A DNA stretch of 64,000 nucleotides, taken from Polyangium spumosum (GTDB lineage Bacteria > Myxococcota_A > Polyangia > Polyangiales > Polyangiaceae). The position numbers and the translations under genes are program-made. The stretch is from NCBI RefSeq assembly GCF_009649845.1, contig NZ_WJIE01000001.1, positions 1,039,054 to 1,103,053 on the forward strand, in the 5' to 3' direction. Under the pieces are notes generated by a model. It had not been told where the DNA came from, made no database searches, and saw only the letters and a list, made by a program, of their open reading frames with translations. This document shows positions 44,220-61,800 of the stretch, piece after piece; position 1 is the first letter of the stretch, and each line of letters starts with the position of its first letter.

Positions 44220-45161
44220 ATGCGCCGAGACATTCTACGCCGTACCCTCCTCCTGGGCTTCGCCGCCCTGCCCGTCGCCGTCGTCGCGAGCCACGCGACC
44301 GCCGGTTGTGGCTCCGATCCGCCCGACGTCATTGGACAAACCACCGCGTCCGGAGGCGCGGGCGGCGCGGGGGGGAACGGGGGCGGCGGCGCGGGCTCGG
44401 TCGCCTCGGGCACGGGCGGCATGGGCGGCATGGGAGGCGCCGCCAGCTCGAGCAGCAGCGGGATGTTCATCGACGACGCGGGCCCGAAGGCCTGCCCCTC
44501 GGTCCCGAACACGCCGCCCATGGTCGCCGTGCCGGGCTGGGACGGAGACGCGTATTGCATCGACGCCACCGAGGTGACGAACGCGCACTACGTCGCCTGG
44601 CTCGAGAGCGCGCCGGACGTCGCGAGCCAGGTCCCCTATTGCGCGTCGAACCTCTCCTTCGCGCCCTCCGCAGGGATGCCGCCGAAGGACGATTACCCCG
44701 TCGGCAACGTCGACTGGTGCGACGCGTTCGCCTATTGCAAGGCCGTGGGCAAGCGGCTCTGCGGCCGCATCGGCGGCGGCCCGGCGCCGTATTATGCGCA
44801 CGACGATCCCACGCGGAACCAGTGGTTCGGCGCTTGCAGCCACGGCGGCGCGCAAGGGTATCCTTATGGCCAGGCGTACGACGCGAACGCCTGCAACGTG
44901 AAGGACGCGGCCTACGGCGCCGTCTTGCCCGTGGGCACGCTCGCGAGCTGCGAGGGCGGCTTCCCCGGGATCGTCGACATGAGCGGGAACGTGTGGGAAT
45001 GGGAGGACGCTTGTATCCCGTCCGACGGCGGCGCGGACATCTGCCGGCGCCGCGGCGGATCGTTCTCCAGCACGGCCGAGAACGTCGATTGTGACATCTC
45101 GAGCTCGCGCCCGCGCAACGCAGCGGAGGCGAACACGGGCTTCCGATGTTGCGCCGATTGA
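44220..45161 (+). CDS. SUMF1/FGE-like exported lipoprotein-type protein A
   Basis: 313 residues. The N-terminus RRDILRRTLLLGFAALP is a Tat- or Sec-type signal, with ATAGC as a possible lipobox. A Gly-rich linker precedes the FGE-sulfatase (SUMF1) fold: MVAVPGWDGDAYCIDATEVTNAHY (cited in part), VGNVDWCDAFAYCKAVGKRLC, MSGNVWEWED, RRGGSF and NTGFRCC. SUMF1 enzymes convert Cys to formylglycine in sulfatases, but most bacterial members lack the catalytic Cys pair and have other or unknown roles; only one Cys aligns here. GGGGGAG precedes the ATG. The next SUMF1-like gene lies 346 bp downstream. Confidence 0.85.
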   Translation: MRRDILRRTLLLGFAALPVAVVASHATAGCGSDPPDVIGQTTASGGAGGAGGNGGGGAGSVASGTGGMGGMGGAASSSSSGMFIDDAGPKACPSVPNTPPMVAVPGWDGDAYCIDATEVTNAHYVAWLESAPDVASQVPYCASNLSFAPSAGMPPKDDYPVGNVDWCDAFAYCKAVGKRLCGRIGGGPAPYYAHDDPTRNQWFGACSHGGAQGYPYGQAYDANACNVKDAAYGAVLPVGTLASCEGGFPGIVDMSGNVWEWEDACIPSDGGADICRRRGGSFSSTAENVDCDISSSRPRNAAEANTGFRCCAD

Positions 45162-45507: not shown

Positions 45508-46647
45508 ATGCCTCCCCTCTTTGCCTCCCCGATCCGCCGCGCCGCCCTCGTGGTCCTCGCTTCAGCCCTCGCCGGCTGCACGTCTGCCGAGACCCGCGAG
45601 AAGGAAGCCGCTCCGACCGCGCCGGCCTCGGCGTCGGCTGCGCCGAGCGTCGCCGCGCCCGCGCCGCCCCCGAAGGAGCCCGAGGCGCCCGCGCCCAAGG
45701 CATTCGCGCCCCTGCCGCCGCTCCCCGACGAGGATCTCTACCCGGACACGCTCGAGGAGCAACGTGAGGCGCTCTTCCGGCGCATGGTCTCCATGCTTCA
45801 CGTCACGGACGAGCAAATGGCCACCGTTCGCGCCATTTTCCAGCGTTCGCCGGTGCTCGGCCAGGGCAACCCCAAGGTCACGAAACATCCGATGACCCGG
45901 AAGGCGTGCCGCGAGGCGCGCAACGCGGCCGGGGGGTTCGAGCAGGACGAACCGATGTGCGGCGCGCCGTTCATGGCGCCTGTTTATGACGGGCTCGCGG
46001 GGGAGAAGGAGGCGGACGCGCGGGTCTGCGTCGACCGCTACGAGTTCCCGGGCATCCCGTGCGAGCACCCGGTCACGGGCCCGACGGCGAAGGAGGCGGC
46101 CGAGCTCTGCGAGGCGATCGGCAAGCGGCTCTGCGACGCGCACGAATGGGAGGGCGCGTGCGCCGGCGCCGTCCACGCGCCCGAGCAGGAGTATTCGTTC
46201 GACAGGCCGCGCAAGGAATCGAAGGACCTGCACAATCGGGATCGCGAGCTCGTCTGGGCCTACGGCCGCGCGAAGGACCATTCGAAGTGCGCCACGAAGA
46301 GCCGGAAGAGCAAAGGGTGCACGTCGAGCGGATGGAAGCGCTGCGGGACGAACACGTTCCCGGCCGGATCCTTCCCGGAGTGCAGAAGCCCGTTCGGCGT
46401 GTACGATCAACACGGGAACGTGGCGGAGCACATGAACCTACCGCTGCGCCCCGGGGAGCTGACGAGCCGCGGGGGCACAGGTCAGACCGAGATGAAGGGG
46501 AGCTGGTTCATCTTCTCGGAGTTCGAGGCGCACCCGGACGATTGCCGGTGGCGCGCGCCCGACTGGCACGCGACCCGGGTGACGGATCCCAACAGCCACG
46601 GCAATTACCACCTCGGCTTCCGTTGCTGCAAATCGATCGGGAAATGA
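45508..46647 (+). CDS. SUMF1/FGE-like lipoprotein B
   Basis: 379 residues. Lipoprotein signal with lipobox ALAGC at about residue 23, then an Ala/Pro-rich linker to residue 70, a short helical region (EEQREALFRRMVSML) and a SUMF1-type domain from about 130: VCVDRYEFPGIPCEHPVTGP (start), AIGKRLCDAHEWEGAC, VYDQHGNVAEHM and HLGFRCC. As in its neighbour, the paired catalytic Cys of true formylglycine enzymes is not apparent. Extra basic inserts (KDHSKCATKSRKSKGC) distinguish it. It ends 27 bp before the CsgA-like gene, so the two could be co-transcribed. Function unknown. Confidence 0.85.
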   Translation: MPPLFASPIRRAALVVLASALAGCTSAETREKEAAPTAPASASAAPSVAAPAPPPKEPEAPAPKAFAPLPPLPDEDLYPDTLEEQREALFRRMVSMLHVTDEQMATVRAIFQRSPVLGQGNPKVTKHPMTRKACREARNAAGGFEQDEPMCGAPFMAPVYDGLAGEKEADARVCVDRYEFPGIPCEHPVTGPTAKEAAELCEAIGKRLCDAHEWEGACAGAVHAPEQEYSFDRPRKESKDLHNRDRELVWAYGRAKDHSKCATKSRKSKGCTSSGWKRCGTNTFPAGSFPECRSPFGVYDQHGNVAEHMNLPLRPGELTSRGGTGQTEMKGSWFIFSEFEAHPDDCRWRAPDWHATRVTDPNSHGNYHLGFRCCKSIGK

Positions 46648-47364: not shown

Positions 47365-50328
47365 TCACTCCGCCGCTTTGCCGGTGAACAGGTCGAAGAT
47401 CGTGACGTCGACGCTCGCCGCCAGGCCGACCTGCAAGGCGTGGGCGCCCGGCATGCTGAGCCCGGACTCCCAGGCGCGGAGCCCGGGCCGGAAGACGCCG
47501 TAAATCCCGAGGTTGAAGGGGCTGTCGAAGAGGCCCGCGCGCAGGTAGACGCCCGGCGCGAGCAGGGTGAGGAGCTGCGCCCCGGGCAGACGGCCATTCC
47601 GTTCGACGTCGTATTGCAGATAAGCGGCCGGATCGATGAGCGAGAAGAACGCGCCGAGGTTGTAACCGCCGCGCCCGCTCGCGAAATCGAGGCCGAGCGG
47701 CATGGTCAGGGTCGGGGCGACGACGTGGGGCACGCCGCCGCGCTCGGTGGTGGTCCCGTACGTGCCGAAGCGCAATTCGCCGCCGACGAACATGCCGGGG
47801 AACGCGTTGATCGAGAGGGTGGTGGCGCCGGGCGTGTTTTTCCGTCGCCAGCCGCCGATGGGCATGGCGGCCGCGTCGAGGGCCTCGGCGATCCGCGAAG
47901 GATCGGCCTCGAAGGCGATCGACGCGAAGAGGCCGCTGTGGCGCGCGATCGCGTCGAGCGGGCGGCAAGGCCCCTTCCCCGCGGCGCAGAGCTCCCTGCA
48001 CGCCTCGTCCTGGCACATCCGCGTGAGATCGGCCCGCGCGGCCGCCACGACCCGCGCCACGACCCGCCCCCAATCCTCGGCGAGCGCCGCCTCGATCGTC
48101 TCGACGCTCCCCGCGAGGCGCCCGAGCTCGACCCGCGCCGCGGCGAAGTGCGGCGCGATCTCGCCGGGCGAACACGTGGCCGCCTTGCAGAGGCCCGGGA
48201 GCGGGGCGGCCTCGGAGAGGCGCTCGCCGGCCGCGACGAAGGCGACGGCGAGGTCGAGCGACGCGCGGGCGAGGACCACGGCGGCGCGCTGGAGGGCGAA
48301 GGATCGCGTTTGGCTCGCCAACCGCGACGTGTCACGGGCGTAGGCCTCGAGGGCCCGCACGATTTCACCGATCTTTTTGCCGTCGACGTCCACGCCGATC
48401 TGGAGGGCGGGCGGGGGCACGAGCCTGGGATCGATCGGCGCGCGGAGCGCCTCCGCGGCGGCTCGATAGGCCTCGAAGGCCATGAGCACGGCGCTCCAGC
48501 GGGTCGCGAGCTCGGCCGCGGGGAGACGCACGAAGCTCGACCACCGCACGATCGTCGAGAGCTTTTCGAGGGGCCCCGTGGCTTCGAGCGTGGTGAGCAG
48601 CGCCGCGTCCGGGTCGCCCGGGAGGTTCGGGTCCTTGCGGCGACACGCGCGGGCGGCGGGCGCGTCGAGGTCGGCGGAGAACACGGGGCAATCGCTCCGG
48701 GAAAAACCCCGGCCGACGAGGGTGAAGCAGGCGGGTGACGTGGTGAGCGCGGCGAGCAGGAGCGCCTCGGTCTCCTCGGCGCGGCCGGGCCGGGTCTGCC
48801 GGACGAGCTCGCCATACTCCTGGAAGACGTGCGGGAGGGAGGCGGCGCACGCCGCGATTTCGAGGCGCGGGCTGAAGAGCCGGCCGGGCGCGCCACGAAA
48901 GACACGATACCCGTTCACGCCGTCGATCTCGTCGCCGAAATGGGCGAGGCTCAAGGCCGCATTCGCGCCCGTGGAGAGGTCGGAGACGAGCTTGCCGGCC
49001 GCCGCGCGCAGGCGCGCCTCCGCGCCACAAGCGAGCCGCCGCCTCGCGCGGGCCTCGCAGGTGACGCGGTCGGGCGTGCTGGTTTCGCAGACGAGGGGGG
49101 CCGAAGGGTCTTCCTCGCAGGAGAAGAGCGTCCCGCCGAGGTTCATGTCGGCCCACAACGAGGTCCCGACGCCGAGGCCGAGCGCGACGCCGGGCCAGCC
49201 CTTCACGTCGGAGGCGACCGCGCCGCGTAGCGCGCCGAGCAAGCTCTCGCCGCCGCCATATTGCGCGAAATCGAGGCGACGGGTGGAGAGGGCGCAGGTC
49301 GTGGGCAACCAGTACGATCGAATCTCCCGATAGGGTTCGCCCTGCGCGCCGGCCGGCGTCTTCGCCCGTCCGCAGGCGTCCTCGTGCAATCGCTCGAGGA
49401 ACCACGCGAGCGCCTCGCGCCGGGCCCTGTCGCCCACGAAGCTCGCGAGCGCCCGGACGCCGACGTCGAGCGTGGCCGCCGTGAACGCGGCGACCTCGAG
49501 GCCGGTGTGCTGCACGGTGAAGATCCGGGTCGCCGCCGCGGGCACCCCCAGCAGGGGCCATTGGCGGGCGAGGAGCGGATCGGCCTCGCCCATCTCGGCG
49601 AGGGAGAGGACGCTCCGATCCGCGAGGACGACGCGGATCGGGGCGAATTTCCTGGCCACGTGACGCGCGACGGCCTCGACGGAGCGGTGGTCCGCGATCA
49701 CGGCCGCATTCGCCAGCGCGGGTGACGAGAACTCGCACATGTCGACCGGCGACGAGGCCGTGTCCCCTGCCCCGCAGAGCTCGGCGCAGAGCTCGCCGCG
49801 TAATCCCACGAGGCCACGCGCCGCCTCGTCGACCTTGCCCGCGACCTCTCGCCGCGCGGCGTCTTCGAGGGCCTTCTTCTCGCGTTTCACCGCCCCGAGC
49901 GCCGCGACCGTCCGCGCCTCGAACGGCCTCGCGACGAGGTCTTGCTCGAGCTTCTTTTGCCGCGCCTCGACGGCCTCGATCCCCTTGCGCTCGGCCACGA
50001 GCCGCGCCGCGGCCTTCTCGAGCGCGGCCTTCGGATCCTCGCCCGCCCCGCCCGCGCAGGACGCCCGCAAGGCGCGCGCGAACGAGACCAGCGATTCGAC
50101 ACGATCGACGTGGACCTGCACGGGATCCCCCGCGTCGTCCGGGCGCGTGGCCCCGCTCCCGGCCGGTATCACGGGCAGCGGAGCAGGCGCCGCATTCGCG
50201 GGAGGCGTGGGTTGATCCGAAGGGACGTCGACGAGCGTGACTTGCCCGGCGCTCGCGACGCCACCCGCGGCCGTGCCGAGGAGCGTGAGCCCGATTGCGA
50301 CGATCGAATGTTTGGTCCTCGTCCTCAT
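47365..50328 (-). CDS. Large exported protein, function unknown
   Basis: 987 residues starting MRTRTKHSIVAIGLTLLGTA, a signal peptide probably cut near ASA. The body is mainly helical with many Arg/Ala/Glu segments (about 80-800) and contains a number of paired Cys, for example about 180-200 and 520-560. The last 150 residues look beta-rich with alternating hydrophobic residues (GGYNLGAFFSLIDPAAYLQY and later strands), which could be a small outer-membrane barrel. It lies 19 bp downstream of the trypsin-like protease gene in the same direction, so the two form an operon. ATG 50328 is preferred over an upstream TTG. Confidence 0.75.
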   Translation of the reverse strand: MRTRTKHSIVAIGLTLLGTAAGGVASAGQVTLVDVPSDQPTPPANAAPAPLPVIPAGSGATRPDDAGDPVQVHVDRVESLVSFARALRASCAGGAGEDPKAALEKAAARLVAERKGIEAVEARQKKLEQDLVARPFEARTVAALGAVKREKKALEDAARREVAGKVDEAARGLVGLRGELCAELCGAGDTASSPVDMCEFSSPALANAAVIADHRSVEAVARHVARKFAPIRVVLADRSVLSLAEMGEADPLLARQWPLLGVPAAATRIFTVQHTGLEVAAFTAATLDVGVRALASFVGDRARREALAWFLERLHEDACGRAKTPAGAQGEPYREIRSYWLPTTCALSTRRLDFAQYGGGESLLGALRGAVASDVKGWPGVALGLGVGTSLWADMNLGGTLFSCEEDPSAPLVCETSTPDRVTCEARARRRLACGAEARLRAAAGKLVSDLSTGANAALSLAHFGDEIDGVNGYRVFRGAPGRLFSPRLEIAACAASLPHVFQEYGELVRQTRPGRAEETEALLLAALTTSPACFTLVGRGFSRSDCPVFSADLDAPAARACRRKDPNLPGDPDAALLTTLEATGPLEKLSTIVRWSSFVRLPAAELATRWSAVLMAFEAYRAAAEALRAPIDPRLVPPPALQIGVDVDGKKIGEIVRALEAYARDTSRLASQTRSFALQRAAVVLARASLDLAVAFVAAGERLSEAAPLPGLCKAATCSPGEIAPHFAAARVELGRLAGSVETIEAALAEDWGRVVARVVAAARADLTRMCQDEACRELCAAGKGPCRPLDAIARHSGLFASIAFEADPSRIAEALDAAAMPIGGWRRKNTPGATTLSINAFPGMFVGGELRFGTYGTTTERGGVPHVVAPTLTMPLGLDFASGRGGYNLGAFFSLIDPAAYLQYDVERNGRLPGAQLLTLLAPGVYLRAGLFDSPFNLGIYGVFRPGLRAWESGLSMPGAHALQVGLAASVDVTIFDLFTGKAAE

Positions 50329-50347
50329 GGCGTCTCTTTGCAAGCAA

Positions 50348-50989
50348 TCAAGCGCAAGCCATCGCGGCTTCCATGCTGGCGAGCACCGACGGGGCGGCGA
50401 GCGCCTGGGCCCGGCCGCCGCCGCTCGGGCCGGGGCCGAGGTAGATGCCGACCACCGCCACGGGTGGCCCCTCGCCGACGAGCGCGACCACGGGCCCGCC
50501 GCTCATGCCGATGCGGCCCTGACGATCGAGCAGGACCCGCGCATCGGCCGGCCTCGCCCGCGCCGGCACGACCACGGGCGGCCGCGGCGCCTCGTTTCCC
50601 AGGGGATACCCCCATATCTGCGCGGCGACGGGCGCGTCGAGCGTGGCCATGCGCAGCGCGCTCGTGCAGCGCGCGTTCACGCGGACGACCGCCACGTCGT
50701 CGGCCGCGACGCCGCCCGACGGAAACGCGATGGCGACGGTCTCGAGCTCGATCCACCGGCCGCCCGAGAGCACCTTGACCGAGACCTCCGAGGGCGCCGC
50801 GCCTCCCGCGAGCCCGACGACGTGCCGGGCCGTGACGACCGAGGAGAGCCAGTCCGCGATGAAGAAGCCCGTCCCCGGCGCCGCCCAGGTCTTGCCGAAG
50901 CGCGCGCGGACGCGGACGACGGGGCCGTCGAGCGGAGGCTCGACCGGCTCGGCCGCGGCGACGCGGAGCATCTGCGCCACGTGGCTCAT
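50348..50989 (-). CDS. Trypsin-like serine protease without export signal
   Basis: 213 residues. The HtrA/trypsin-type fold is visible from residue 20: FGKTWAAPGTGFFIADW, then catalytic His56 (VVTARHVVG), Asp98 (ADDVAVVRVN) and Ser163 (GRIGMSGGPVVAL). All three triad residues are present. There is no signal peptide, PDZ domain or propeptide, so it should be cytoplasmic or released by another route. GAGGG lies upstream of ATG 50989. The exported 987-residue protein downstream could be its partner or substrate (inference from the operon only). Confidence 0.85.
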   Translation of the reverse strand: MSHVAQMLRVAAAEPVEPPLDGPVVRVRARFGKTWAAPGTGFFIADWLSSVVTARHVVGLAGGAAPSEVSVKVLSGGRWIELETVAIAFPSGGVAADDVAVVRVNARCTSALRMATLDAPVAAQIWGYPLGNEAPRPPVVVPARARPADARVLLDRQGRIGMSGGPVVALVGEGPPVAVVGIYLGPGPSGGGRAQALAAPSVLASMEAAMACA

Positions 50990-51120
50990 CGGCCGGGCCC
51001 TCGCGCGGGCGCGCCTTCGTGAGGGGCAGGGCGGGGCGAGGCGTTCACCACGCCTCATCTTAACGCGCCTTCCCCCGGAAAGCGCGTTTGCTGCGAACGG
51101 CGCGCGTGGTGGCCCGGCCC

Positions 51121-52686
51121 TCATCGCGGCGCCGGATACGCCACGAGGAGCTCGGGCGAGATCCGGCGCTCCTCGGCGATGAGGCCATAGGTCTCGGCCG
51201 TCTTGCGCGGCGTGCGGTTCTTCTGCGGATCCGCGGGGTCGACCGCATAGAGCCCGTGACGCCGGTTCGTGCCCTGGTTCCAGGCATAACCGTCGAGCAG
51301 GCTCCAGAAAAAATACCCGCGCAGGTCGATCCCCTCTCGCACGGCGCGGCTCGCCCAGGCGAGGTGCCGGACGAGGTAACTCGGCCCCGCGTCGTCGTCG
51401 TCCTCCGGGTGATCGAGCCCATTGCCCGCGACGAAGAGCGGCAATCCATAGCTGCGCTGGGCGAGCGAGAGCATCTCGTAGAGGCCCTCGGGGTCCTCCG
51501 CGCCCGGGCGCACGTCGAACGGATCGAACGTGCCGAGCGGCGAGAGCTCGTGGAGCAAGGGCACGCTCGTGCCCTTCACCGTCAAGGGCGCTCGATACGT
51601 GACGCCGAGCCAATCCATGCGGCCCTCCAGATCGGCGCGCCGCGCGCTCTTTCCCGCGAGCTCCGCGTCGAGCTCCCCCCGCGCGACGGCGTCGAGGTAA
51701 GCGAGGTTGTACAGGTAAAACAGGTTTTTGGCGGCCTTCACGTCGAGCGTGTTCGTCGGCTCGGCCGGGGACGCGGGCGTCATGCCGTACACGAGGCCGA
51801 CGTCGGAGGGCGCTCCGTCGCCGTCGGCGTCGACCACGTCGTTCGCCTTGACCGCGTCGTACATGCGCGCGTGCGCCTCGACGAGCGCGACGAACACCTC
51901 CTTGGCCTCGCCAAGCGCGAGGGACACCGCCGGCGGATGGCTGCGCTCGACGCTCGGAGCGAGGTAACCGGCGTGCAGGACCGCAAAAGGCTCGTTCAGG
52001 GTGGCCCAGCGATCGACGTCCGCGCCGAACTCCCGCGCGACGAAGGCCGCGTACTTGGCGATCTCGGCGACGGTGCGCTCGCGATCGAGCCACCCCCGCG
52101 GCGAACACGCGGCGAGGTTCAGGTGGCACCCGACGCTGTCGTGAATCCACCCGGGCAGCGTACCGTGATTCAGGGTGACGATGGGGGACATGCCGCGCAC
52201 CCGGAGGCCGGCGAGCATGGCGTGGTAATGCGCGAGCGTGGCCTCGTCCGCCACGGCCCGCAGCGCCTCGTACCCCGTGATCCCCTCGGTCGACGCCGGG
52301 AAGACGCGGCTCCACTCGATGCTGAAGCGAAACGCGCCATTGTGCAGCTCGCCCCGCGCCCGATCGAGATCCATGTCGTAGAGCTCCCAGAACCCGGGGC
52401 CGACGACGGCGGGATCTTGCCCGGACAGGTATGCCTTGGCGGAGCCCGTCGTCGCGGGGGAGGTCGCGAACGCATACCAATCCGATCCGTTATCGACGCA
52501 ACCACCGAGGCCGGGCGTCGGGCAGCCCATGTCGACCTGGAAACCGCCGATCGCGGTGCCGAACAGAAACCCCTCGGGAAACGAAAGATCCTCGGCCAGC
52601 TCGGGGACCTCGGCCTCCGGAGGGTCCTCCCCGCACGCGGCCAGCAGAATCATCATCGGTATGGCGAGGCGGAAAACGGTTCTCAT
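51121..52686 (-). CDS. GH1-like lipoprotein lacking the catalytic nucleophile
   Basis: 521 residues. Lipoprotein signal with lipobox LLAAC at residue 18. The rest is a glycoside hydrolase family 1 barrel: FLFGTAIGGFQVD (start), FRFSIEWSRVFP, TLNHGTLPGW, the acid/base region TLNEPF (Glu232), and GYFFWSLLDGYAW near the end. Where family members have the nucleophile in the ITENG motif, this protein reads FVAGNG, with Gly421 in place of Glu. It is therefore unlikely to work as a normal beta-glucosidase. It may bind sugar, or act by another mechanism. ATG 52686 is favoured by the signal peptide; ATG 52704 is also possible. Confidence 0.85.
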   Translation of the reverse strand: MRTVFRLAIPMMILLAACGEDPPEAEVPELAEDLSFPEGFLFGTAIGGFQVDMGCPTPGLGGCVDNGSDWYAFATSPATTGSAKAYLSGQDPAVVGPGFWELYDMDLDRARGELHNGAFRFSIEWSRVFPASTEGITGYEALRAVADEATLAHYHAMLAGLRVRGMSPIVTLNHGTLPGWIHDSVGCHLNLAACSPRGWLDRERTVAEIAKYAAFVAREFGADVDRWATLNEPFAVLHAGYLAPSVERSHPPAVSLALGEAKEVFVALVEAHARMYDAVKANDVVDADGDGAPSDVGLVYGMTPASPAEPTNTLDVKAAKNLFYLYNLAYLDAVARGELDAELAGKSARRADLEGRMDWLGVTYRAPLTVKGTSVPLLHELSPLGTFDPFDVRPGAEDPEGLYEMLSLAQRSYGLPLFVAGNGLDHPEDDDDAGPSYLVRHLAWASRAVREGIDLRGYFFWSLLDGYAWNQGTNRRHGLYAVDPADPQKNRTPRKTAETYGLIAEERRISPELLVAYPAPR

Positions 52687-52770
52687 GAAGGCGAAACCTA
52701 TCATGGAACGGAAAAACCGCTGGGTGAGGGAATTCGGAAAACCTGCGTATGATCCAGCCCCGACGAACCC

Positions 52771-53508
52771 TCACACAATGGAGCGTCCGCCGTCCACGGC
52801 GAGCACCTGCCCCGTCACGAAGTGGTTTTTCGCAAAAAACAAAACCGCGCGCGCCACGTCGGAAGGCTCGCCGATCCGCCCGAGCGGTATCTTCCGCAGC
52901 ATCCGCTCGCGCCGCTCGTCGTCGGCGTCCTCGGGCGGCAGGACCGTACCCGGCGAAACCACGTTGACGCGCACGTCGGGCGCGAGCGCCAGGGAAAGCC
53001 CCTGCATCACCGAGACGAGCGCGGCCTTGGAGATCGAATACGGGATGTAATGCTTGAAGGGCCGCTCCGCGCTGACGCAGCCGATCGCCACGACGGCCCC
53101 CTTCGCCGCGCGGAGCTCCGGCGCGAGCGCGAGCGTGAGCAGATAAGGCGCCGTCGCGTTCAACGCCATCGCACGATCCCAGGCGCCCGCGTCGAGCGCG
53201 TCCGGCGATACCCGCTCGAAATTGGCAGCGTTGTGCACGAGCAGGTCGATCCTGCCCGCGCCGAACCGCCGCGCCCGGGCCGCGAGGCCGCTCACCCCCG
53301 TACGGTCCGAAAGGTCGGCCCGATGGAGCTCGACACGCGCGCCCCGCGAAAGGAGGTGCTCGCGCGCCTCGCGCGCGGCCTCCTCGCTCGCCGCATAATG
53401 AATGAGGACGTCGTATCCGTCGTCGACGAGCGCCTCCACGATCGTCCGCCCCACACGCACCGCTCCGCCCGTGACGAGCGCGATACGTCCGCTCTCCTGA
53501 TCGCTCAT
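52771..53508 (-). CDS. Short-chain dehydrogenase, pteridine-reductase-like
   Basis: 245 residues. NADP-binding TGGAVRVG near residue 14 fits the TGxxxRxG motif of pteridine reductases (PTR1/FolM) rather than the usual TGxxxGIG of SDRs. The catalytic YSISK lies near 167. Other blocks: [45 protein letters not shown] and [16 protein letters not shown], all typical. It probably reduces a dihydropterin or related substrate; dihydrofolate is less sure. The ATG at 53508 has AGG upstream at long spacing. It is alone, with the FKBP gene 134 bp away on the other strand. Confidence 0.85.
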
Positions 53509-53642
53509 GCCGGAGAGCCTACCGCGCCCCCGACGCGGGCGCGCCCCACAGGCACGTTTTCCCACGTCGAGCCCCCGATTCGCTTGACGAGCGAGCGGCC
53601 AGCCGGTCGAATACGCCCCAGGCCCCGAAGAGGAGGATTCAG

Positions 53643-53985: not shown

Positions 53986-56900
53986 TCACTGCGGGATGCC
54001 GAGCCGGCCGTGATCCACGCGCAGGTTCGAGAGCGCCCGCGCGACCACGTCCGCCAGAGGACGGCCCCGGGGGATGATCTCCCCTTCCACGCCCCCGGGA
54101 CGATCAAACGACCACACGAGCACGGAGCCCGCAGCATCCCAGGGCACGAAACGCGTGCGCCCGCGCAGCGGCATGTTGCCCACGATCTCGCGCCGCGCGA
54201 CGTCGAGCGCCGCCACACGATCCGCCGAGAGCAGGAGCATGGAGCGGCCGTCCGGCGCGACGGAGACGTCCTCCCAGACCGTGGCCGCCGAGGCCTCGAG
54301 CACACGCTCGGGGCCCTGCGCGTGGAGCACGACGACGCCCGTGTCGTCCGCATACACGAGCTCGCCCGGCCGAGGCCCGTCGGCGAGCGCCGTCGCGCGC
54401 GGGCTCGCGTACCCGAGCACCCGGACCTCCGCCGTCGCCTCGTCGATCCGCGCGACCGCGCCGGAGCTCACCGCGATCCACAGGCCCGCCGAAGCCCCGC
54501 CACGCGCGGCGCTCGGGCGCACGTCGTACACGTAGCCGTCCGCAGAGGCCATCACGCGCGGCGTGGGTGAGGCGCCGTCGAGGGACGTCACCACGAGCGC
54601 GCCGTCGAGCCGCTGCGTGAAGAGAGCGCGGCACACCTCGTCCACGGCGAGGACGAGGCCCGGCTCGCGAGCGACCTTCCCGATCGTGGCGCCGCTGCGA
54701 GCGTCGAACACGTGCCACGTGTCGCCCTCGCGCGCCCACGCGGCGACGCGGCCGTCCTGGCAGCGGCGCAGGAGGTTGCCCTTGCGGCCGAGCTCGCGCT
54801 TGCCATCGGCGATGCGGTAGAAGCGGACCTCGTCGTCCACCTGGAACGCGACGACGTCATTGCTCTCGCGCACCACGGCGAGGACCGAGCTCGTCTTCGA
54901 GGGCTCGCCCTCATGGCCGCGCTCGTCCGCGCCGCGGAACTGCACGAGTGGCTCGATCGCGCTCGTGGCGCCGGCGAGCAGCACGAGGTCGGCGGTCACG
55001 ACGCTGCCGTCCTCGAGGCGATGGCCGCCGAGCAGATCACGCGGGCCGATGGGGACACGCGCGAGCTCGGGGACCTCGTCCCGCGAGGTGATGAGCCGCG
55101 GGCGCCTGGGGCGAGGCGCAGGCGCGCAAGGAGCGCCCTTCGGAGGCGTATCGCCGGGCGCGCGTCCGCCGCGGCGGAGGTAGTGGTACCGGCCGGTGAG
55201 GGCCTTGTCGGGGCTCGTGGGGTCGGCGCCGCAGATCGCGACGTCGAGGCCACCTTCGTCCCAGCGAAGGGACGAGGGCGCCTCGACGCTCTCGCCGCGG
55301 AAGAGGGGCGCGTCGAGCCGCGCGGGATCGAAGATCTCGAAGGCGCCGAGCTCGGCGAGGGCGAGCAACGGCTCACGCGGGCCGAAGCGCGCGAGGATGG
55401 GCGCGCTCGTCGCCTTCACCTCGCTCGTCGTGCCGTCGGCCGATCGCCAGATCACGAGCCTCGATCCGGACGCGGCCGCGACGAGGGATCCATCCGGCGA
55501 GACGTCGAGCACGATGCCCTGGAACGGGTGCGTGGTGACCTCCCCGGGCCGGCGGAGATCCCAGCGCAAGAGCCCACTCTCCGAAGGGCACGCGAGCACG
55601 GGCGCCGCGTCCGCGACCTCGAGCGCGCCCGTGCAACGACGCGGCGCGATGGCCGCGAGCTCGACCTCGCCGTCGGGTCGTAGCCGGAAGATACGCACCT
55701 CGCCCGTCACCGAACGCGTGGCGAGCGCCGTGTCGAAGGGGAGCGGGACACGCTCGACGAACGGCGCGTCGTGAGGGCGCACGACGAGCGTGCGTGGATG
55801 CAGCTCCGCTCGCTCGGGCGGCGCTTCGCCCTCGGGCGTGGCCTGGTAGAACGGGTCGAAGTGCAGATCGACGACGACGAGCCGCGTGGATCCTTGTGTC
55901 GCGACGAGCCACCGATCGTCCCAAGGGAACACCGGGTTCGTCGAGGGCTCGAGCGTGAGGAACTGCGCGCGCGGCAGGCCCGATCCCGCGCGGAGCAGGT
56001 CGAGCGGCAGCGCCGGATCCTCCGCGCCGAACTCGATGGCCTCGGCGATCCAGGCCGCGCGCTGGTACGGGTCGTCGACGCGGCGTGACCGGAAGAGGAC
56101 GTCGGCCACGTAGGCGCGCTCTTCGGCCTCGAGGCGCGCTCGCTCGGCGCGCGCTTGCCGATCGTCGATCGCGCGTTTCCCCACGACCGCAGAGGCGAGC
56201 AGCGCGAGCAAGAGCACGAGCGAGGCGCCCTTCATGATCTTGCGCCGCCGCGCGAGGCGACGGCTCCTCGTGACGAGCTGGCGTTCGAGCGTGGTGAGCG
56301 AGCCACGCGTCCAGGTGGGCCTGCGCTCGACCTCCTCGAAGAGCCAGCCCGTGAGCAGGAAGTCCGGGTGGTACGCCGCTCGATCCCAGGCGATCGCCGC
56401 GTCGCGCAGCCGCTCGAGGAAGACGAGCCGCTCGGCCTCGCGGCTGCGCACCTGCTCGACCCGCGGCAGCACGGCGATCGAAGGGTGCGAGAGCTCGACG
56501 CGGCCGTCGCGCCGCCGGACGAGGCCCTCGCGCTCGAGGCGCAAGATCACGCGCCGCGCGAGCGCGCCGTCGTCGCCGAGGACCGTGACGAGCTCCTCCT
56601 CGTCCCAGCGAAGGGGTCCGTGATCGGTCGTCGAGAGCCGCAAGACCGCCTCGATCGCGATCTCGCGTGACGCGTCGTCGAGCGAGAGGAAGAGCTCTTC
56701 GGCGTGCGCGGCGAGCGCGCCGACGAGCCCGCCGAGCTTCTGCCACTTCTCCGCGGAGAGCACGAGGCCCGCGCGTTTCCCCCAGAGCGCCGCGAGCGCG
56801 AGCGCGCAGAGCGGCAGACGATCATCCGCGCCGCGGAGCTCACGCTGCATGTCGGCCACGATCGCGTCCGCGCCGATCACCCGCGCGCCCGCGAGCCGCG

Positions 56901-58533
56901 CGGGCCCGGTCACGATGTCGAGCACGGCCGCGGCCGGCGGAGGGCCCACGAAGCGCAGCGCCGCGCGCAGAGCGGCGAAGGGCGACGCCGGGTTCGCGAG
57001 GCTCGTGACGTCCTTCTCGCCGAGCGTCGAGAGCGCGCGTAGCCCCGGCCGCTCGCCGCCCTCCGCGAGATCGGCGAGCAGGCGCGCGAGCCGCGTGTTC
57101 GTGCCTTCCGGCGCGGCGAGCGCCTCCTCCAGCGGATCGACGAGCAAGACGACACCCACGGCCGAGCTCGCGGCGTGGCGCGTGATCTCCTCCGACGAAG
57201 CGCCGGCGAGGGCCGGATCGAGCGCGCCGAGCGCCGCGTCGAGCGCTCGATCGGGGTGCTCGCCCGGCCGAACGCAGAGCGTGATCCAGTCGTCCTTGCC
57301 GTCCACCGCGGCGCGCGCGAGGTGCGGGACGAGGCCGGCCCGCGCGAGCGACGACTTGCCCGCCCCGCGTGGCCCGTACAGCACCAGCGCCGGTTCGAAC
57401 GCGAGCTCGCGGCCGAGGCGCGCGACGTCGTCGTCGCGCCCGAAGAGCTGCCCCTCGGCCTCCTTCGGCAGCGGCACGAGCCCGGCGTACGGCGGATCCA
57501 TCACGCCGTACGGTCGCTCCCACGCCTCGTCGAAGAGCGCGGCGAGCTTGCCCGGCGTCACGCCTCGTTGCTGCGGATCCACGGACAGCAGGCGGACGAG
57601 CAGCGCCACGAGCCCGCGCGGCAGGCCCGCCGGATCGGCCGCGAGATCCCGCAGCCGGCCGCGGAGCGTCGCGTCGCGCAGATCGGAGAACCACGCGCTC
57701 ATCGCCGAGGGATCGGAGAGCTCCGTCGGCTCGTCCGCGACGTCCTCGTACGGCATGCGCCCCGTCGCGAGCTTCACGATCGTGGCGGCGAGGGCGTACG
57801 CGTCGGCCGCGGGCGTGGGCTCGGCGAGCTCGAGGATCTCGGGCGCCATGTACCCCGGCGTGCCCACGACGGCGCGGCCCGAGCTCTGCGCGCGGGTGGA
57901 AGGAGAGCGCGACGGCGCGTGCGGGAGCGACGCGCGTTCGTCCTGCGCTGCGACGAACGCCGCCGTCTCGAGCCCCTCGCCGTCGGCGAGCATCGGCGGC
58001 GCGACCTCGGGCGCCTTCGATCCGGACCGCCGCGAGATGCCGAAGTCGAGCACCTTGAGCGCGCCGTCGTTCGAGAGGAACAGGTTCGCCGGCTTGAGAT
58101 CGAGGTGCACCACGCCCCGCGCGTGGATCACGTCGAGCGCCGCCGCCGCCCTTCGCGCCCAGCCGAGCACGCGCCGCCAGGGCACGCGCCTCCGCTCGCG
58201 CAGCACGTCCGCGAGGTTCTTGCCCTCGAGCAGCTCCATCGCGACGAACGGGAGCGGCTCCGGCTCGCGCAGCACGCCGGCCGCGTAGATCGTCACGAGC
58301 GCGGGGTGCCGGAACGAGGCGAGCAGCTTCGCCTCCTCGGCCCAGTGCGCGGCGTCGTACGCCGTCCGCAAGAGGAGCTTCAGCGCGAGCGTGCGCAGCG
58401 GCGCGCCGTCGGGCAAGAGCTCCTCGGCCCGCCACACGTCGCCGAACCCGCCACGACCGAGCCGCTCGAGGAGCAAGAACCGCCCGTCGAGGAGCTCACC
58501 CGAGGCGTATTCCCGCGGCGCTCTTGCGCTCAT
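53986..58533 (-). CDS. Ser/Thr kinase fused to STAND ATPase, membrane helix and WD40-like region
   Basis: 1515 residues. Kinase domain about 15-330: G loop LGRGGFGDVW, Lys52 (TLALKLLL), catalytic loop HLDLKPANL at 143-151 (Arg of HRD replaced by Leu, a non-RD type), DFG at 163-165 and APE near 230. A STAND-type ATPase (nSTAND1-like) follows with Walker A GPRGAGKSSL at about 387-396 and Walker B VVLLVDPLEE near 461-470. A membrane helix is at about 767-786. The remaining 700 residues are beta-rich repeats with WD40/PQQ-like strands, probably a propeller outside the cytoplasm. It is last in a three-gene operon. Substrates and trigger unknown. Confidence 0.9.
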   Translation of the reverse strand: MSARAPREYASGELLDGRFLLLERLGRGGFGDVWRAEELLPDGAPLRTLALKLLLRTAYDAAHWAEEAKLLASFRHPALVTIYAAGVLREPEPLPFVAMELLEGKNLADVLRERRRVPWRRVLGWARRAAAALDVIHARGVVHLDLKPANLFLSNDGALKVLDFGISRRSGSKAPEVAPPMLADGEGLETAAFVAAQDERASLPHAPSRSPSTRAQSSGRAVVGTPGYMAPEILELAEPTPAADAYALAATIVKLATGRMPYEDVADEPTELSDPSAMSAWFSDLRDATLRGRLRDLAADPAGLPRGLVALLVRLLSVDPQQRGVTPGKLAALFDEAWERPYGVMDPPYAGLVPLPKEAEGQLFGRDDDVARLGRELAFEPALVLYGPRGAGKSSLARAGLVPHLARAAVDGKDDWITLCVRPGEHPDRALDAALGALDPALAGASSEEITRHAASSAVGVVLLVDPLEEALAAPEGTNTRLARLLADLAEGGERPGLRALSTLGEKDVTSLANPASPFAALRAALRFVGPPPAAAVLDIVTGPARLAGARVIGADAIVADMQRELRGADDRLPLCALALAALWGKRAGLVLSAEKWQKLGGLVGALAAHAEELFLSLDDASREIAIEAVLRLSTTDHGPLRWDEEELVTVLGDDGALARRVILRLEREGLVRRRDGRVELSHPSIAVLPRVEQVRSREAERLVFLERLRDAAIAWDRAAYHPDFLLTGWLFEEVERRPTWTRGSLTTLERQLVTRSRRLARRRKIMKGASLVLLLALLASAVVGKRAIDDRQARAERARLEAEERAYVADVLFRSRRVDDPYQRAAWIAEAIEFGAEDPALPLDLLRAGSGLPRAQFLTLEPSTNPVFPWDDRWLVATQGSTRLVVVDLHFDPFYQATPEGEAPPERAELHPRTLVVRPHDAPFVERVPLPFDTALATRSVTGEVRIFRLRPDGEVELAAIAPRRCTGALEVADAAPVLACPSESGLLRWDLRRPGEVTTHPFQGIVLDVSPDGSLVAAASGSRLVIWRSADGTTSEVKATSAPILARFGPREPLLALAELGAFEIFDPARLDAPLFRGESVEAPSSLRWDEGGLDVAICGADPTSPDKALTGRYHYLRRGGRAPGDTPPKGAPCAPAPRPRRPRLITSRDEVPELARVPIGPRDLLGGHRLEDGSVVTADLVLLAGATSAIEPLVQFRGADERGHEGEPSKTSSVLAVVRESNDVVAFQVDDEVRFYRIADGKRELGRKGNLLRRCQDGRVAAWAREGDTWHVFDARSGATIGKVAREPGLVLAVDEVCRALFTQRLDGALVVTSLDGASPTPRVMASADGYVYDVRPSAARGGASAGLWIAVSSGAVARIDEATAEVRVLGYASPRATALADGPRPGELVYADDTGVVVLHAQGPERVLEASAATVWEDVSVAPDGRSMLLLSADRVAALDVARREIVGNMPLRGRTRFVPWDAAGSVLVWSFDRPGGVEGEIIPRGRPLADVVARALSNLRVDHGRLGIPQ

Positions 58534-58817: not shown

Positions 58818-61800
58818 TCAGGAAGCTCGCTCCATCACGAGCCGCAAGAGGGGCGGGAGCCTTCGTACGTCGCACGGCACCTTGATGGAAGGGCCTCCGA
58901 CCACCGAGCTCATGAGGCACGTCCCGGCGCGCGGCAAGTGCTCCATCCAGAACACATCGAACCTCTCCTCGTGCGCCACGCGCCGCAAGAACGGCTCGAG
59001 CGGCAGCACGAGCCCCTCGCGCCACCGCGCGAGGTACGTCACGTTCGCCAGGCGCATCGGGCTGTTCAGCCCGAGCCGCCTCCGTGTCCCCGTGTTGAAC
59101 GCGCCCGTGTGGTCGATGAACTCGACCGTCTGCAGATCGCCGTAGAGATCCGGCTCCGTCTTCTCGACCGTGACGAGCGTCCACGCGCAGAGCGGCCGGA
59201 GCGCCCGGAGCAAGGTGCGCGTCATCTGCTCGAACTCGGGCAGATCGGCGGCCGCGCGCGCCTCGTTGTAGTGCCCGTGCGCGAAGCTGTTGCGCTCGAC
59301 CTGCATCAGGTTCGAGAGCGTCTCGAACGTCTGGTTCTGCGAGAGCCTGACGCCGAGCACGTCCCGCACGAGCGCGCCGATCGGATCGTCGCGCCCGTCG
59401 AAGCCCTTCGCCGCCGCCCGCGCGATCTCCCGCCAGGTCCCGAGCGCGAAGCCGTCGCGGCTGCCGTGCCGCCGGTAGAGCTCGACCATCGCGTCGAACC
59501 CCGGCGCCGGCTCGGCCGCGCCCTCGGCGGGCCTGCGCGCGAAGTACGCCGAGAGCAGCACCGTCGCGATGAAGCGCCACGTGCCCTCGAGTACGTCGAA
59601 GAGCATCTTCACCCGCTCGATCGCGCTCGACGCGGCGATCGCGGCGTGCACGCGGCCCGAGATCGGATACGGCAGCCCGCCGCTGAGCGCCGAGAGCACC
59701 CCGTGTGGATCGGCGCACTCGCGCGCGAGCTCCTGCGCTCGCGTCTGCACGTCGCCGTGCAGGACCTCCCACGAGAGCGTGCGCGGCAGCTCCACCTTGC
59801 CGTCGAGGATCGGCGGGCGCGCGTGCCAGTCACACTGCACCGCGCTGCCCAGCGCGACCGCGTCCACCTTCCGCGTCACGCACGCCGCCACGACGCCCGG
59901 CGCGAGCGGCGCGACGACCGCCGCTTGCCCCGCGTGCGTGGCCGCGACAGCCGCGAGCTCCTTCTCCAGCGCCGCCACCACGTGGGGCCCCACCGCCGAG
60001 AGCGCCTTCTGCTCCTCGATCGCGAAGAGCAGCGTCGTCCGCTTCGTGTCGATCGACGCGCCGAGCACCTCCGGCACGCTCGAGATCCGCGCGCCCGGCA
60101 CGCTCGAGCGTAGCGCCGCGACCGCTTGCCCCGACGTCTCCGAGAACGCCGTCATCGCGTGCAGCGCGAGCTCGAGCTCGCGCCCCGCGTCGCTCCCGTC
60201 GCCGGAGAGCGTCCAGTACCCGCACGAGAACGAGCGCCCATCGGCCACGCGGAGCAGCGACGCCGCCGCCGCGCGCCCCTTCTCCGCGACCTCCGCGGCC
60301 TCGCCCGCGACGAGCACCACCGCCGTCTCCTCGACGAGGCCCACCGCCAGGCTCGGCGAGGCGCGGTGCAGCGCCACCGCGGCGAGCGCGCCCGGCGGAT
60401 ACTCCGCGCCCCCGCTGCCTGGCCGCGCCCCCGACGGCTGCGTCTTCACGCAGAGCAACGCGCCCGTGCGCTTGCGCTGCAAGAACGTCGCGATCTCCTG
60501 CTCGAGCCCCGCGCGACCGAGCAGCCCCGTCGTCGGATCCACCGTCCCCGCGGGCACCGTCGGCGTCACGTAGCGCCGATCCACCATCGTCGCGCGCATG
60601 CCTCCGACCTGCACGAACGTCCCGTGCACGAGCGCGCCCTCCTCCCCTCGCCCGAGCGCGTGCGCGCCGACCTGCACGGGCACGCTGCACTCGGTGCGAC
60701 GCCTGAGCCACCAGCGCACGCCGTCGTGCCGCAGCGTCGCCGCCAGGCGCGAGGCCACGTCGGGGTAGACGAGCTCGTTGCGCTCGTCGCCCACCCGCTC
60801 CACGCGCCCGAGCCGCAGCACGCCCACGGGCTCGAGCCGGAGCTCGAACAAGCCGCCGTCCCGGGTCTCGACGCGTAGCCGATCGGGCGCGTTCACCTCG
60901 CCGCGCCAGAGCGAAAACGCGGGCGACGCGCTCAGCCACAACGTCGCGCCTCCCACGGTGTACGTCCGCAGCTCCGCGCCCGGCGCCTCCGCGCCGCTGT
61001 CGCTCTTCGCGGACGGCGCCTCGACGTCACCCGGCGCCGTCGGCCCTGGCCGCACGTTCATCGGCGTGTCCGCCTCCGACGTCGGCAGCGGCGCGCGGGG
61101 CGGCGGCGCCTCGCCCGCGCCCGCCGGACCAAACGCTTGCGAGCGCTCGAGATCCGGCGCGGCCTCCAGCAAGGCCGTGAGGAACGCCTCGGCCGTCGTG
61201 AACCTCGCGTCGCGCTCCCGCGCCATGGCGCGCCGCACCACGCGCCCGATCGCCTCGGGCAGCCCGGGCACGAGGGTCCCGAGATCGGGCGGATCCTTGT
61301 GGCAGATCGCGATCACCAGCCGCGCGAACGTCGGCTCCGAGAACGGCGGCGCCCCGGCGAGCGCCTCGTACAGGATCGCGCCCATCGACCAGATGTCCGT
61401 GCGCGGATCGATGTCGTCGAGCGCCTCGATCTGCTCGGGCGACATGTAAAACGGCGTCCCGACCGGCGTCCCCACGCGCGTCAGCGGATCCTGCGCCGAC
61501 AGGCCCGACGGCGTCACGAGCTCCGCCTCGCCGCCGAGCACCTTCGAAAGGCCGAAGTCGACGATCTTGACGAGCGTCTTTCCGTCGTCGGCCGAGGCGA
61601 GGAAGACGTTCTGCGGCTTCAGATCCCGGTGCACCACGCCCGCCGCGTGCGCGCGCCTGAGCCCGCGCAGCGCCTGCGCCGCGATCGCCACGGCCTCGGA
61701 CACGCTCATCCGACCGCGGCGCCGGAGGCGCGTCGCCAGGTCCTCGCCTTGCAACAGCTCCATCACGAGGAACGGCTCGCCGGCCTCTGTCTCGCCCGTG

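What the first reader, a model, noticed from the sequence alone, without database searches (positions are those of the whole stretch)
51121..52686. GH1 protein with glycine in place of the catalytic nucleophile
The acid/base Glu232 in TLNEPF is kept but the ITENG-type nucleophile reads VAGNG, with Gly421. Laboratory glycosidases with this Glu changed to Gly become glycosynthases, building rather than breaking bonds when given activated sugars. Here it occurs naturally in a membrane-anchored protein. It may be a sugar-binding pseudoenzyme or use an external nucleophile, as plant myrosinases use ascorbate as a base for a different missing residue.
Basis: partly seen in the sequence, partly recalled or inferred. 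Interest (0 to 1): 0.7.

Follow-up and report, generated by a model that had tools for sequence, protein, structure and literature searches.

The report
Dead beta-glycosidase lipoprotein kept by Polyangium
A soil myxobacterium carries a membrane-anchored protein built like a sugar-cutting enzyme whose cutting site was lost in its ancestor, yet all six sampled species of the genus keep the protein, which suggests that the enzyme shape has been reused for a non-enzymatic job.

Summary
It is no sequencing error: all six Polyangium genomes held have Gly there, in a shared gene neighbourhood, while all 107 distinct sampled relatives from outside the genus that cover the position, and all 11 GH1 paralogues in Polyangium genomes, have Glu. 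The six copies form one clade (100/100), so the nucleophile was probably lost once. Pairwise dN/dS is 0.12-0.20, so the gene is maintained. The rest of the sugar site is altered too, partly differently in each species: the family's Tyr181 and Tyr371 are lost in all six; Asn237, Glu238, His180, Trp467, Asn369 and Glu474 in some. In four control clades at most one of 13 site residues varies. This argues against a natural glycosynthase or an external-nucleophile enzyme. The best reading is a genus-wide pseudoglycosidase lipoprotein, comparable in kind to the GH1 pseudoenzyme Klotho, probably acting by binding or scaffolding; its partner is unknown. My searches of open-licence papers found no described bacterial GH1 pseudoenzyme.

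The parts
51121..52704 (-). pseudo-GH1 lipoprotein gene (527 aa; possible alternative start at Met7, 52686)
   Evidence: PF00232 E 3.1e-52; model pLDDT 89.8
52633..52704 (-). signal peptide ending in the lipobox L-A-A-C (Cys24, codon 52633-52635)
   Evidence: sequence; LAAC in all six Polyangium orthologues; no signal-peptide program was run
51424..51426 (-). codon GGC, Gly427, in place of the catalytic nucleophile Glu
51991..51993 (-). codon GAG, Glu238, the retained acid/base (Asp in orthologue L008/L114)
52162..52164 (-). Gly181 in place of the invariant family Tyr beside His180 (Gly in all six)
51592..51600 (-). Thr369-Tyr370-Arg371 in place of family NYY; column 371 is R/G/G/D/G/E in the six species
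51283..51291 (-). Gly472-Tyr473-Ala474 in place of family N-Y-E; Glu474 lost in the window copy only
52771..53565 (-). short-chain dehydrogenase directly upstream on the same strand, 66 bases apart; syntenic in all six Polyangium genomes
50348..51025 (-). trypsin-like peptidase-domain gene (start chosen by eye) directly downstream on the same strand; syntenic in all six

Best explanation
The protein is a pseudoglycosidase: a GH1 barrel on a lipid anchor that lost its nucleophile and the residue that contacts it, probably before the known Polyangium species diverged, and that selection has kept for a non-catalytic role. Shown: the loss, its restriction to the genus among the relatives sampled, the shared neighbourhood, purifying selection on the whole gene, and the released constraint on the pocket. 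Inferred: that it no longer works on sugars, and that it works by binding through its surface, as a membrane-anchored receptor, adaptor or scaffold. The partner is unknown.
For: Gly in 6 of 6 Polyangium genomes; Glu in 107 of 107 distinct outside sequences with the column (96, 11) and in 11 of 11 Polyangium paralogues. One clade at 100/100. Same neighbours in all six. Pairwise dN/dS 0.12-0.20, median 0.16, likelihood ratio against 1 of 63-174. Of 41 columns invariant in 71 relatives, 9 are changed in at least one Polyangium species, and 8 of these 9 belong to a recalled 13-residue catalytic/glycone list (Fisher p 4e-6). All 64 relatives that cover all 12 conserved site columns have them unchanged. 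Within Polyangium 8 of 13 of the listed residues vary, against 0, 0, 1 and 1 of 13 in four control clades. The model keeps the fold (Z 53.3 to 9lhh_A, 1.8 A over 443 residues).
Against: No function or partner is shown, and absence of activity is inferred. The window copy keeps Gln56, Arg126, His180, Asn237, Glu238, Trp467 and Trp475, so weak sugar binding or residual chemistry cannot be excluded. The nonsynonymous rate of the 13 site codons within Polyangium is not extreme (63 of 500 random 13-codon sets reach it), so constraint on the pocket has dropped to about the protein's average and has not vanished. GH1 dN/dS (median 0.16) is a little higher than in three of four neighbours (medians 0.10, 0.12, 0.12; FKBP 0.23). 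The model was built from an alignment made mostly of intact relatives, which may pull the modelled pocket towards theirs.
Confidence: 0.8

Rival explanations
1. A lectin-like pseudoglycosidase: the emptied pocket still binds a sugar or another small ligand, and the protein works as a surface sugar sensor or capture protein. This is a special form of the best explanation, so the two confidences overlap.
For: Gln56, Arg126 and Trp475 are unchanged in all six; positions 53, 181 and 427 are Gly in all six and 371 is Gly in three, which suggests an enlarged pocket. Retained binding is reported for other pseudoglycosidases such as YKL-39 (PMC7828330, passages).
Against: Pocket residues differ between orthologues: R/G/G/D/G/E at 371, N/D at 237, H/Q at 180, W/R at 467, A/E at 474. 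A shared ligand would be expected to hold them.
Confidence: 0.25
2. A natural glycosynthase or an enzyme that uses an external nucleophile.
For: Glu to Gly at the nucleophile is a change used in laboratory glycosynthases (recalled); the window copy keeps the acid/base Glu238 and Asn237.
Against: The partner Tyr and the Tyr beside the His are lost in all six; the window copy lacks Glu474 and Asn369; L008 has lost the acid/base and the His. Activated donors such as glycosyl fluorides are not ordinary metabolites (recalled).
Confidence: 0.03
3. A decaying gene on its way to loss, without function.
For: Lineage-specific loss of further site residues; the highest dN/dS among pairs involves L114 (= L008), the copy with most site losses (0.205).
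Against: Six full-length ORFs, the other five at 79-82% identity to the window copy, dN/dS 0.12-0.20, identity in the range of four of five neighbours, and 32 of the 41 columns invariant in relatives unchanged in all six, cysteines among them.
Confidence: 0.05
4. A different enzyme chemistry evolved in the same pocket, using other acidic residues such as Asp237.
For: Asn237 is Asp in five of six species and Asn472 is Asp in five of six.
Against: The window copy has Asn237 and Gly472, so neither gained acidic residue is shared by all six.
Confidence: 0.06

Closest known systems
Glycoside hydrolase family 1, BgaS-type beta-glycosidases (Sulfolobus 1uwq; 7f1n; 9lhh)
   Same: Fold, full-length alignment, acid/base Glu in the window copy
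   Different: No nucleophile, several glycone-site residues lost, lipoprotein signal; below the NCBIfam BgaS cut-off (261.9 against 475 bits)
Klotho / beta-Klotho (animal GH1 pseudoenzymes)
   Same: GH1-like domains that lack catalytic activity, membrane proteins kept for receptor work (PMC7828330 and PMC10628560, passages)
   Different: Klotho has two tandem GH1 domains and a membrane-spanning segment and serves FGF hormones; this is a single bacterial domain with a lipoprotein signal, derived within a bacterial family
Laboratory glycosynthases (nucleophile Glu to Gly, Ser or Ala; recalled)
   Same: The Glu to Gly change at the same position
   Different: Laboratory glycosynthases keep the rest of the site (recalled); here the site is widely altered
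Plant myrosinases (recalled)
   Same: A GH1 protein that lacks one of the two catalytic glutamates
   Different: Myrosinase lacks the acid/base and keeps the nucleophile, the reverse of this case

Membership tests
GH1 (as homologous family) | PF00232 sequence match over the full domain | tested here: met
   E 3.1e-52, 178 bits against a cut-off of 22.6
GH1 (as homologous family) | GH1 barrel fold | tested here: met
   model pLDDT 89.8; Z 53.3 to 9lhh_A, 443 residues at 1.8 A
GH1 retaining glycosidase (as working enzyme) | Glu nucleophile in the TENG motif | tested here: not met
   Gly427; Gly in 6 of 6 Polyangium genomes
GH1 retaining glycosidase (as working enzyme) | acid/base Glu in NEP | tested here: met
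   Glu238 in the window copy and in 5 of 6 species; Asp in L008/L114
GH1 retaining glycosidase (as working enzyme) | conserved glycone-site residues (list recalled) | tested here: not met
   5 of 12 conserved site columns changed in the window copy, 4 in each of four species, 7 in L114
Glycosynthase | nucleophile replaced by a small residue | tested here: met
   Gly427
Glycosynthase | otherwise intact donor and acceptor site | tested here: not met
   donor (glycone) site altered; the acceptor site was not examined
Glycosynthase | synthesis from glycosyl fluorides | not testable with these tools
   needs bench work
Klotho | GH1 domain lacking catalytic Glu | tested here: met
Klotho | tandem KL1-KL2 domains | tested here: not met
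   one domain in 527 aa
Pseudoenzyme | catalytic residue lost while the gene stays under purifying selection | tested here: met
Pseudoenzyme | absence of activity | not testable with these tools
   needs an assay

The most novel reading that the evidence does not exclude
A bacterial counterpart of Klotho: a GH1 barrel turned, in the ancestor of one myxobacterial genus, into a lipid-anchored surface receptor or adaptor whose emptied pocket diverges between species, possibly for recognition of kin or prey.
Probability: 0.2. Interest if true: 0.75.

Novelty: new variant of a known kind. Interest (0 to 1): 0.5.

Why it matters
GH1 pseudoenzymes are known from animals (Klotho). This is a clean bacterial case: a gene lineage in which the nucleophile was probably lost once, with many intact relatives and six descendants to compare. 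It makes the fate of an enzyme fold after loss of catalysis testable in bacteria, and it warns that annotating this gene as a beta-glucosidase or beta-galactosidase would likely be wrong.

Tried and rejected
Sequencing error: rejected, six genomes agree and two codons (GGC, GGA) encode the Gly. Shifted alignment: rejected, no gap at the motif and strand 423-428 holds it. Another carboxylate at the nucleophile site: Asp431 lies four residues after Gly427 in five of six species but is Ala in one (L006/L034); I had no model coordinates, so no distances were measured and this point stays open. Functional clues from neighbours: nine neighbouring genes were searched by tblastn (E 1e-12) in the fetched loci; outside Polyangium only the 58818 kinase gene gave matches. 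Many loci carry flanks of only about 1.5 kb, or end at a contig edge, so absence of the neighbours is certain only within the DNA held. Positive selection on the pocket: not supported (63 of 500 random codon sets). A survey of nucleophile loss over all bacterial GH1 was not done; only relatives of this protein were sampled, and search listings gave loci for only part of the matches.

The control is partly circular, as the consensus came from the same relatives; the conserved columns outside the site (4 of 68 changed at 95% conservation) and the control clades are the fairer comparison. Rows set aside: fragments L095 and L098 from the tree; 40 rows under 39% identity, including the 11 Polyangium paralogues, from the conserved-column test. 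Seven of the 71 relatives are partial; six of these show no change in the columns they cover, and L129, a contig-end fragment with poor alignment at its broken end, differs in 2 of 8 site columns (126, 238) and 12 of 44 others, but has Glu at the nucleophile. 'Distinct' means not identical over the matched stretch; close relatives (such as L068 and L071) count separately.

Literature: searches; I saw listings with starts of abstracts for these, and passages only of PMC7828330, PMC11448918, PMC6151457 and PMC10628560. The passages found in PMC6151457 were two reference-list entries that did not bear on the question.

Full report
What is there. The finding's coordinates hold a 527-codon gene on the minus strand (51121-52704). 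The protein begins with a signal peptide ending in LAAC (Cys24), kept in all six Polyangium orthologues, followed by one GH1 domain (PF00232, E 3.1e-52, residues 41-512). The closest solved structures by sequence are BgaS-type beta-glycosidases (7f1n, 4ha3, 9lhh, Sulfolobus 1uwq). An AlphaFold model from 39 aligned sequences has mean pLDDT 89.8 and pTM 0.89 and matches GH1 enzymes from residue 39 on (9lhh_A Z 53.3, 443 residues at 1.8 A; Foldseek 7f1n_B E 1.1e-40).

Where it comes from. The genus name is inferred: the search tool places the window's genome in one genus with five others, and the loci of three of these coincide with records titled Polyangium sp. y55x31, Polyangium fumosum and Polyangium sp. 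15x6 (identical sequences). Six genomes are held for the genus.

The missing nucleophile. VAGNG aligns without a gap with V-T-E-N-G of the three best solved enzymes. Gly427 is the last residue but one of strand 423-428 and Glu238 follows strand 232-237, the places of nucleophile and acid/base. Of 117 distinct sequences aligned, 113 have the column: Gly in 6, all Polyangium, and Glu in 107. Those 107 are 96 sequences from outside Polyangium and 11 GH1 paralogues from Polyangium genomes. Eleven further distinct outside sequences from order- and phylum-wide searches have Glu and all 12 conserved site residues. Two codons, GGC and GGA, encode the Gly. The change is real and confined to this genus among the relatives sampled.

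History. A maximum-likelihood tree of 74 rows puts the six Polyangium copies in one clade (100/100, stem 0.65), which fits one loss before the species diverged. The genes FKBP, short-chain dehydrogenase, GH1, trypsin-like peptidase, a 992-aa protein and a second dehydrogenase lie together in all six. In the loci held from outside Polyangium only the kinase gene at 58818 gave matches (many flanks are short). The own genome also holds a second GH1 gene of normal type (G000:C11, TENG).

Selection. Medians for neighbours are 0.10 (dehydrogenase), 0.12 (peptidase), 0.12 (992-aa protein) and 0.23 (FKBP). The gene is maintained nearly as well as its neighbours.

The site as a whole. I used a 13-residue list of GH1 catalytic and glycone-binding positions recalled from Sulfolobus beta-glycosidase work (not from a call). 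Among the 41 columns invariant in 71 relatives, Polyangium changes 9, and 8 of these 9 are on the list; outside it 1 of 31 is changed (Fisher p 4e-6). At 95% conservation it is 9 of 12 against 4 of 68 (p 6e-7), and at 90% 9 of 12 against 8 of 84 (p 3e-6). Changed in all six: 181 (Tyr to Gly), 371 (Tyr to R/G/G/D/G/E), 427 (Glu to Gly), and, not on the list, 53 (Ala to Gly) and 472 (Asn to Gly or Asp). Changed in some: 237 (Asn to Asp, five species), 180, 238 and 467 (L008/L114), 369 and 474 (window). All 64 relatives that cover all 12 conserved site columns have them unchanged; of seven partial ones only the contig-end fragment L129 differs, in 2 of 8, at its broken end. Within Polyangium 8 of 13 site residues vary, against 140 of 466 other positions (p 0.028). 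In four control clades of 5, 7, 8 and 9 sequences, 0, 0, 1 and 1 of 13 vary. By rate of nonsynonymous change the pocket is not extreme (63 of 500 random sets; pN/pS 0.34 against 0.29 for the rest). The pocket has lost its special protection; positive selection is not shown.

How it most likely works. With nucleophile and partner Tyr gone in all species and the acid/base, His or Glu474 gone in some, a shared glycosidase, glycosynthase or rescue chemistry is unlikely. The fold residues, the invariant cysteines (61, 69, 193, 200) and the lipobox are kept. I infer a membrane-anchored, non-catalytic binding protein or scaffold. Whether the pocket binds a ligand is open; its variation between species argues against one conserved sugar.

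Compared with the known. GH1 domains without catalytic function that serve as receptors are known in Klotho (passages of PMC7828330, and PMC10628560). In the searches made (listings) I found no described bacterial GH1 pseudoenzyme and no natural Gly at the nucleophile; the library holds only open-licence papers. I therefore call it a new variant of a known kind.

Noticed in passing
L102 (G003:C61:23417-24736) and L104 (G004:C1:10682655-10683641): A second, normal-type GH1 gene of Polyangium carries an in-frame stop within the matched stretch in two species (one TGA, one TAG), so this paralogue may be decaying in part of the genus.
   Followed up: no
window 47365-50343 (-): A 992-aa protein with no Pfam match, syntenic in all six Polyangium genomes at 77-83% identity.
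   Followed up: no
window 44220-45161 (+) and 45508-46647 (+): Two genes close together with the sulfatase-modifying-factor (FGE) domain; the second is about 90-92% identical over 295 residues in the five other Polyangium species.
   Followed up: no
window 53986-58533 (-): A protein kinase domain and a novel STAND NTPase (nSTAND1) domain in one 1515-aa protein.
   Followed up: no
upstream of window 52704: The stretch between the dehydrogenase and the GH1 gene stays similar between the six species when translated in the GH1 frame, so the leader or an earlier start may be under constraint.
   Followed up: no
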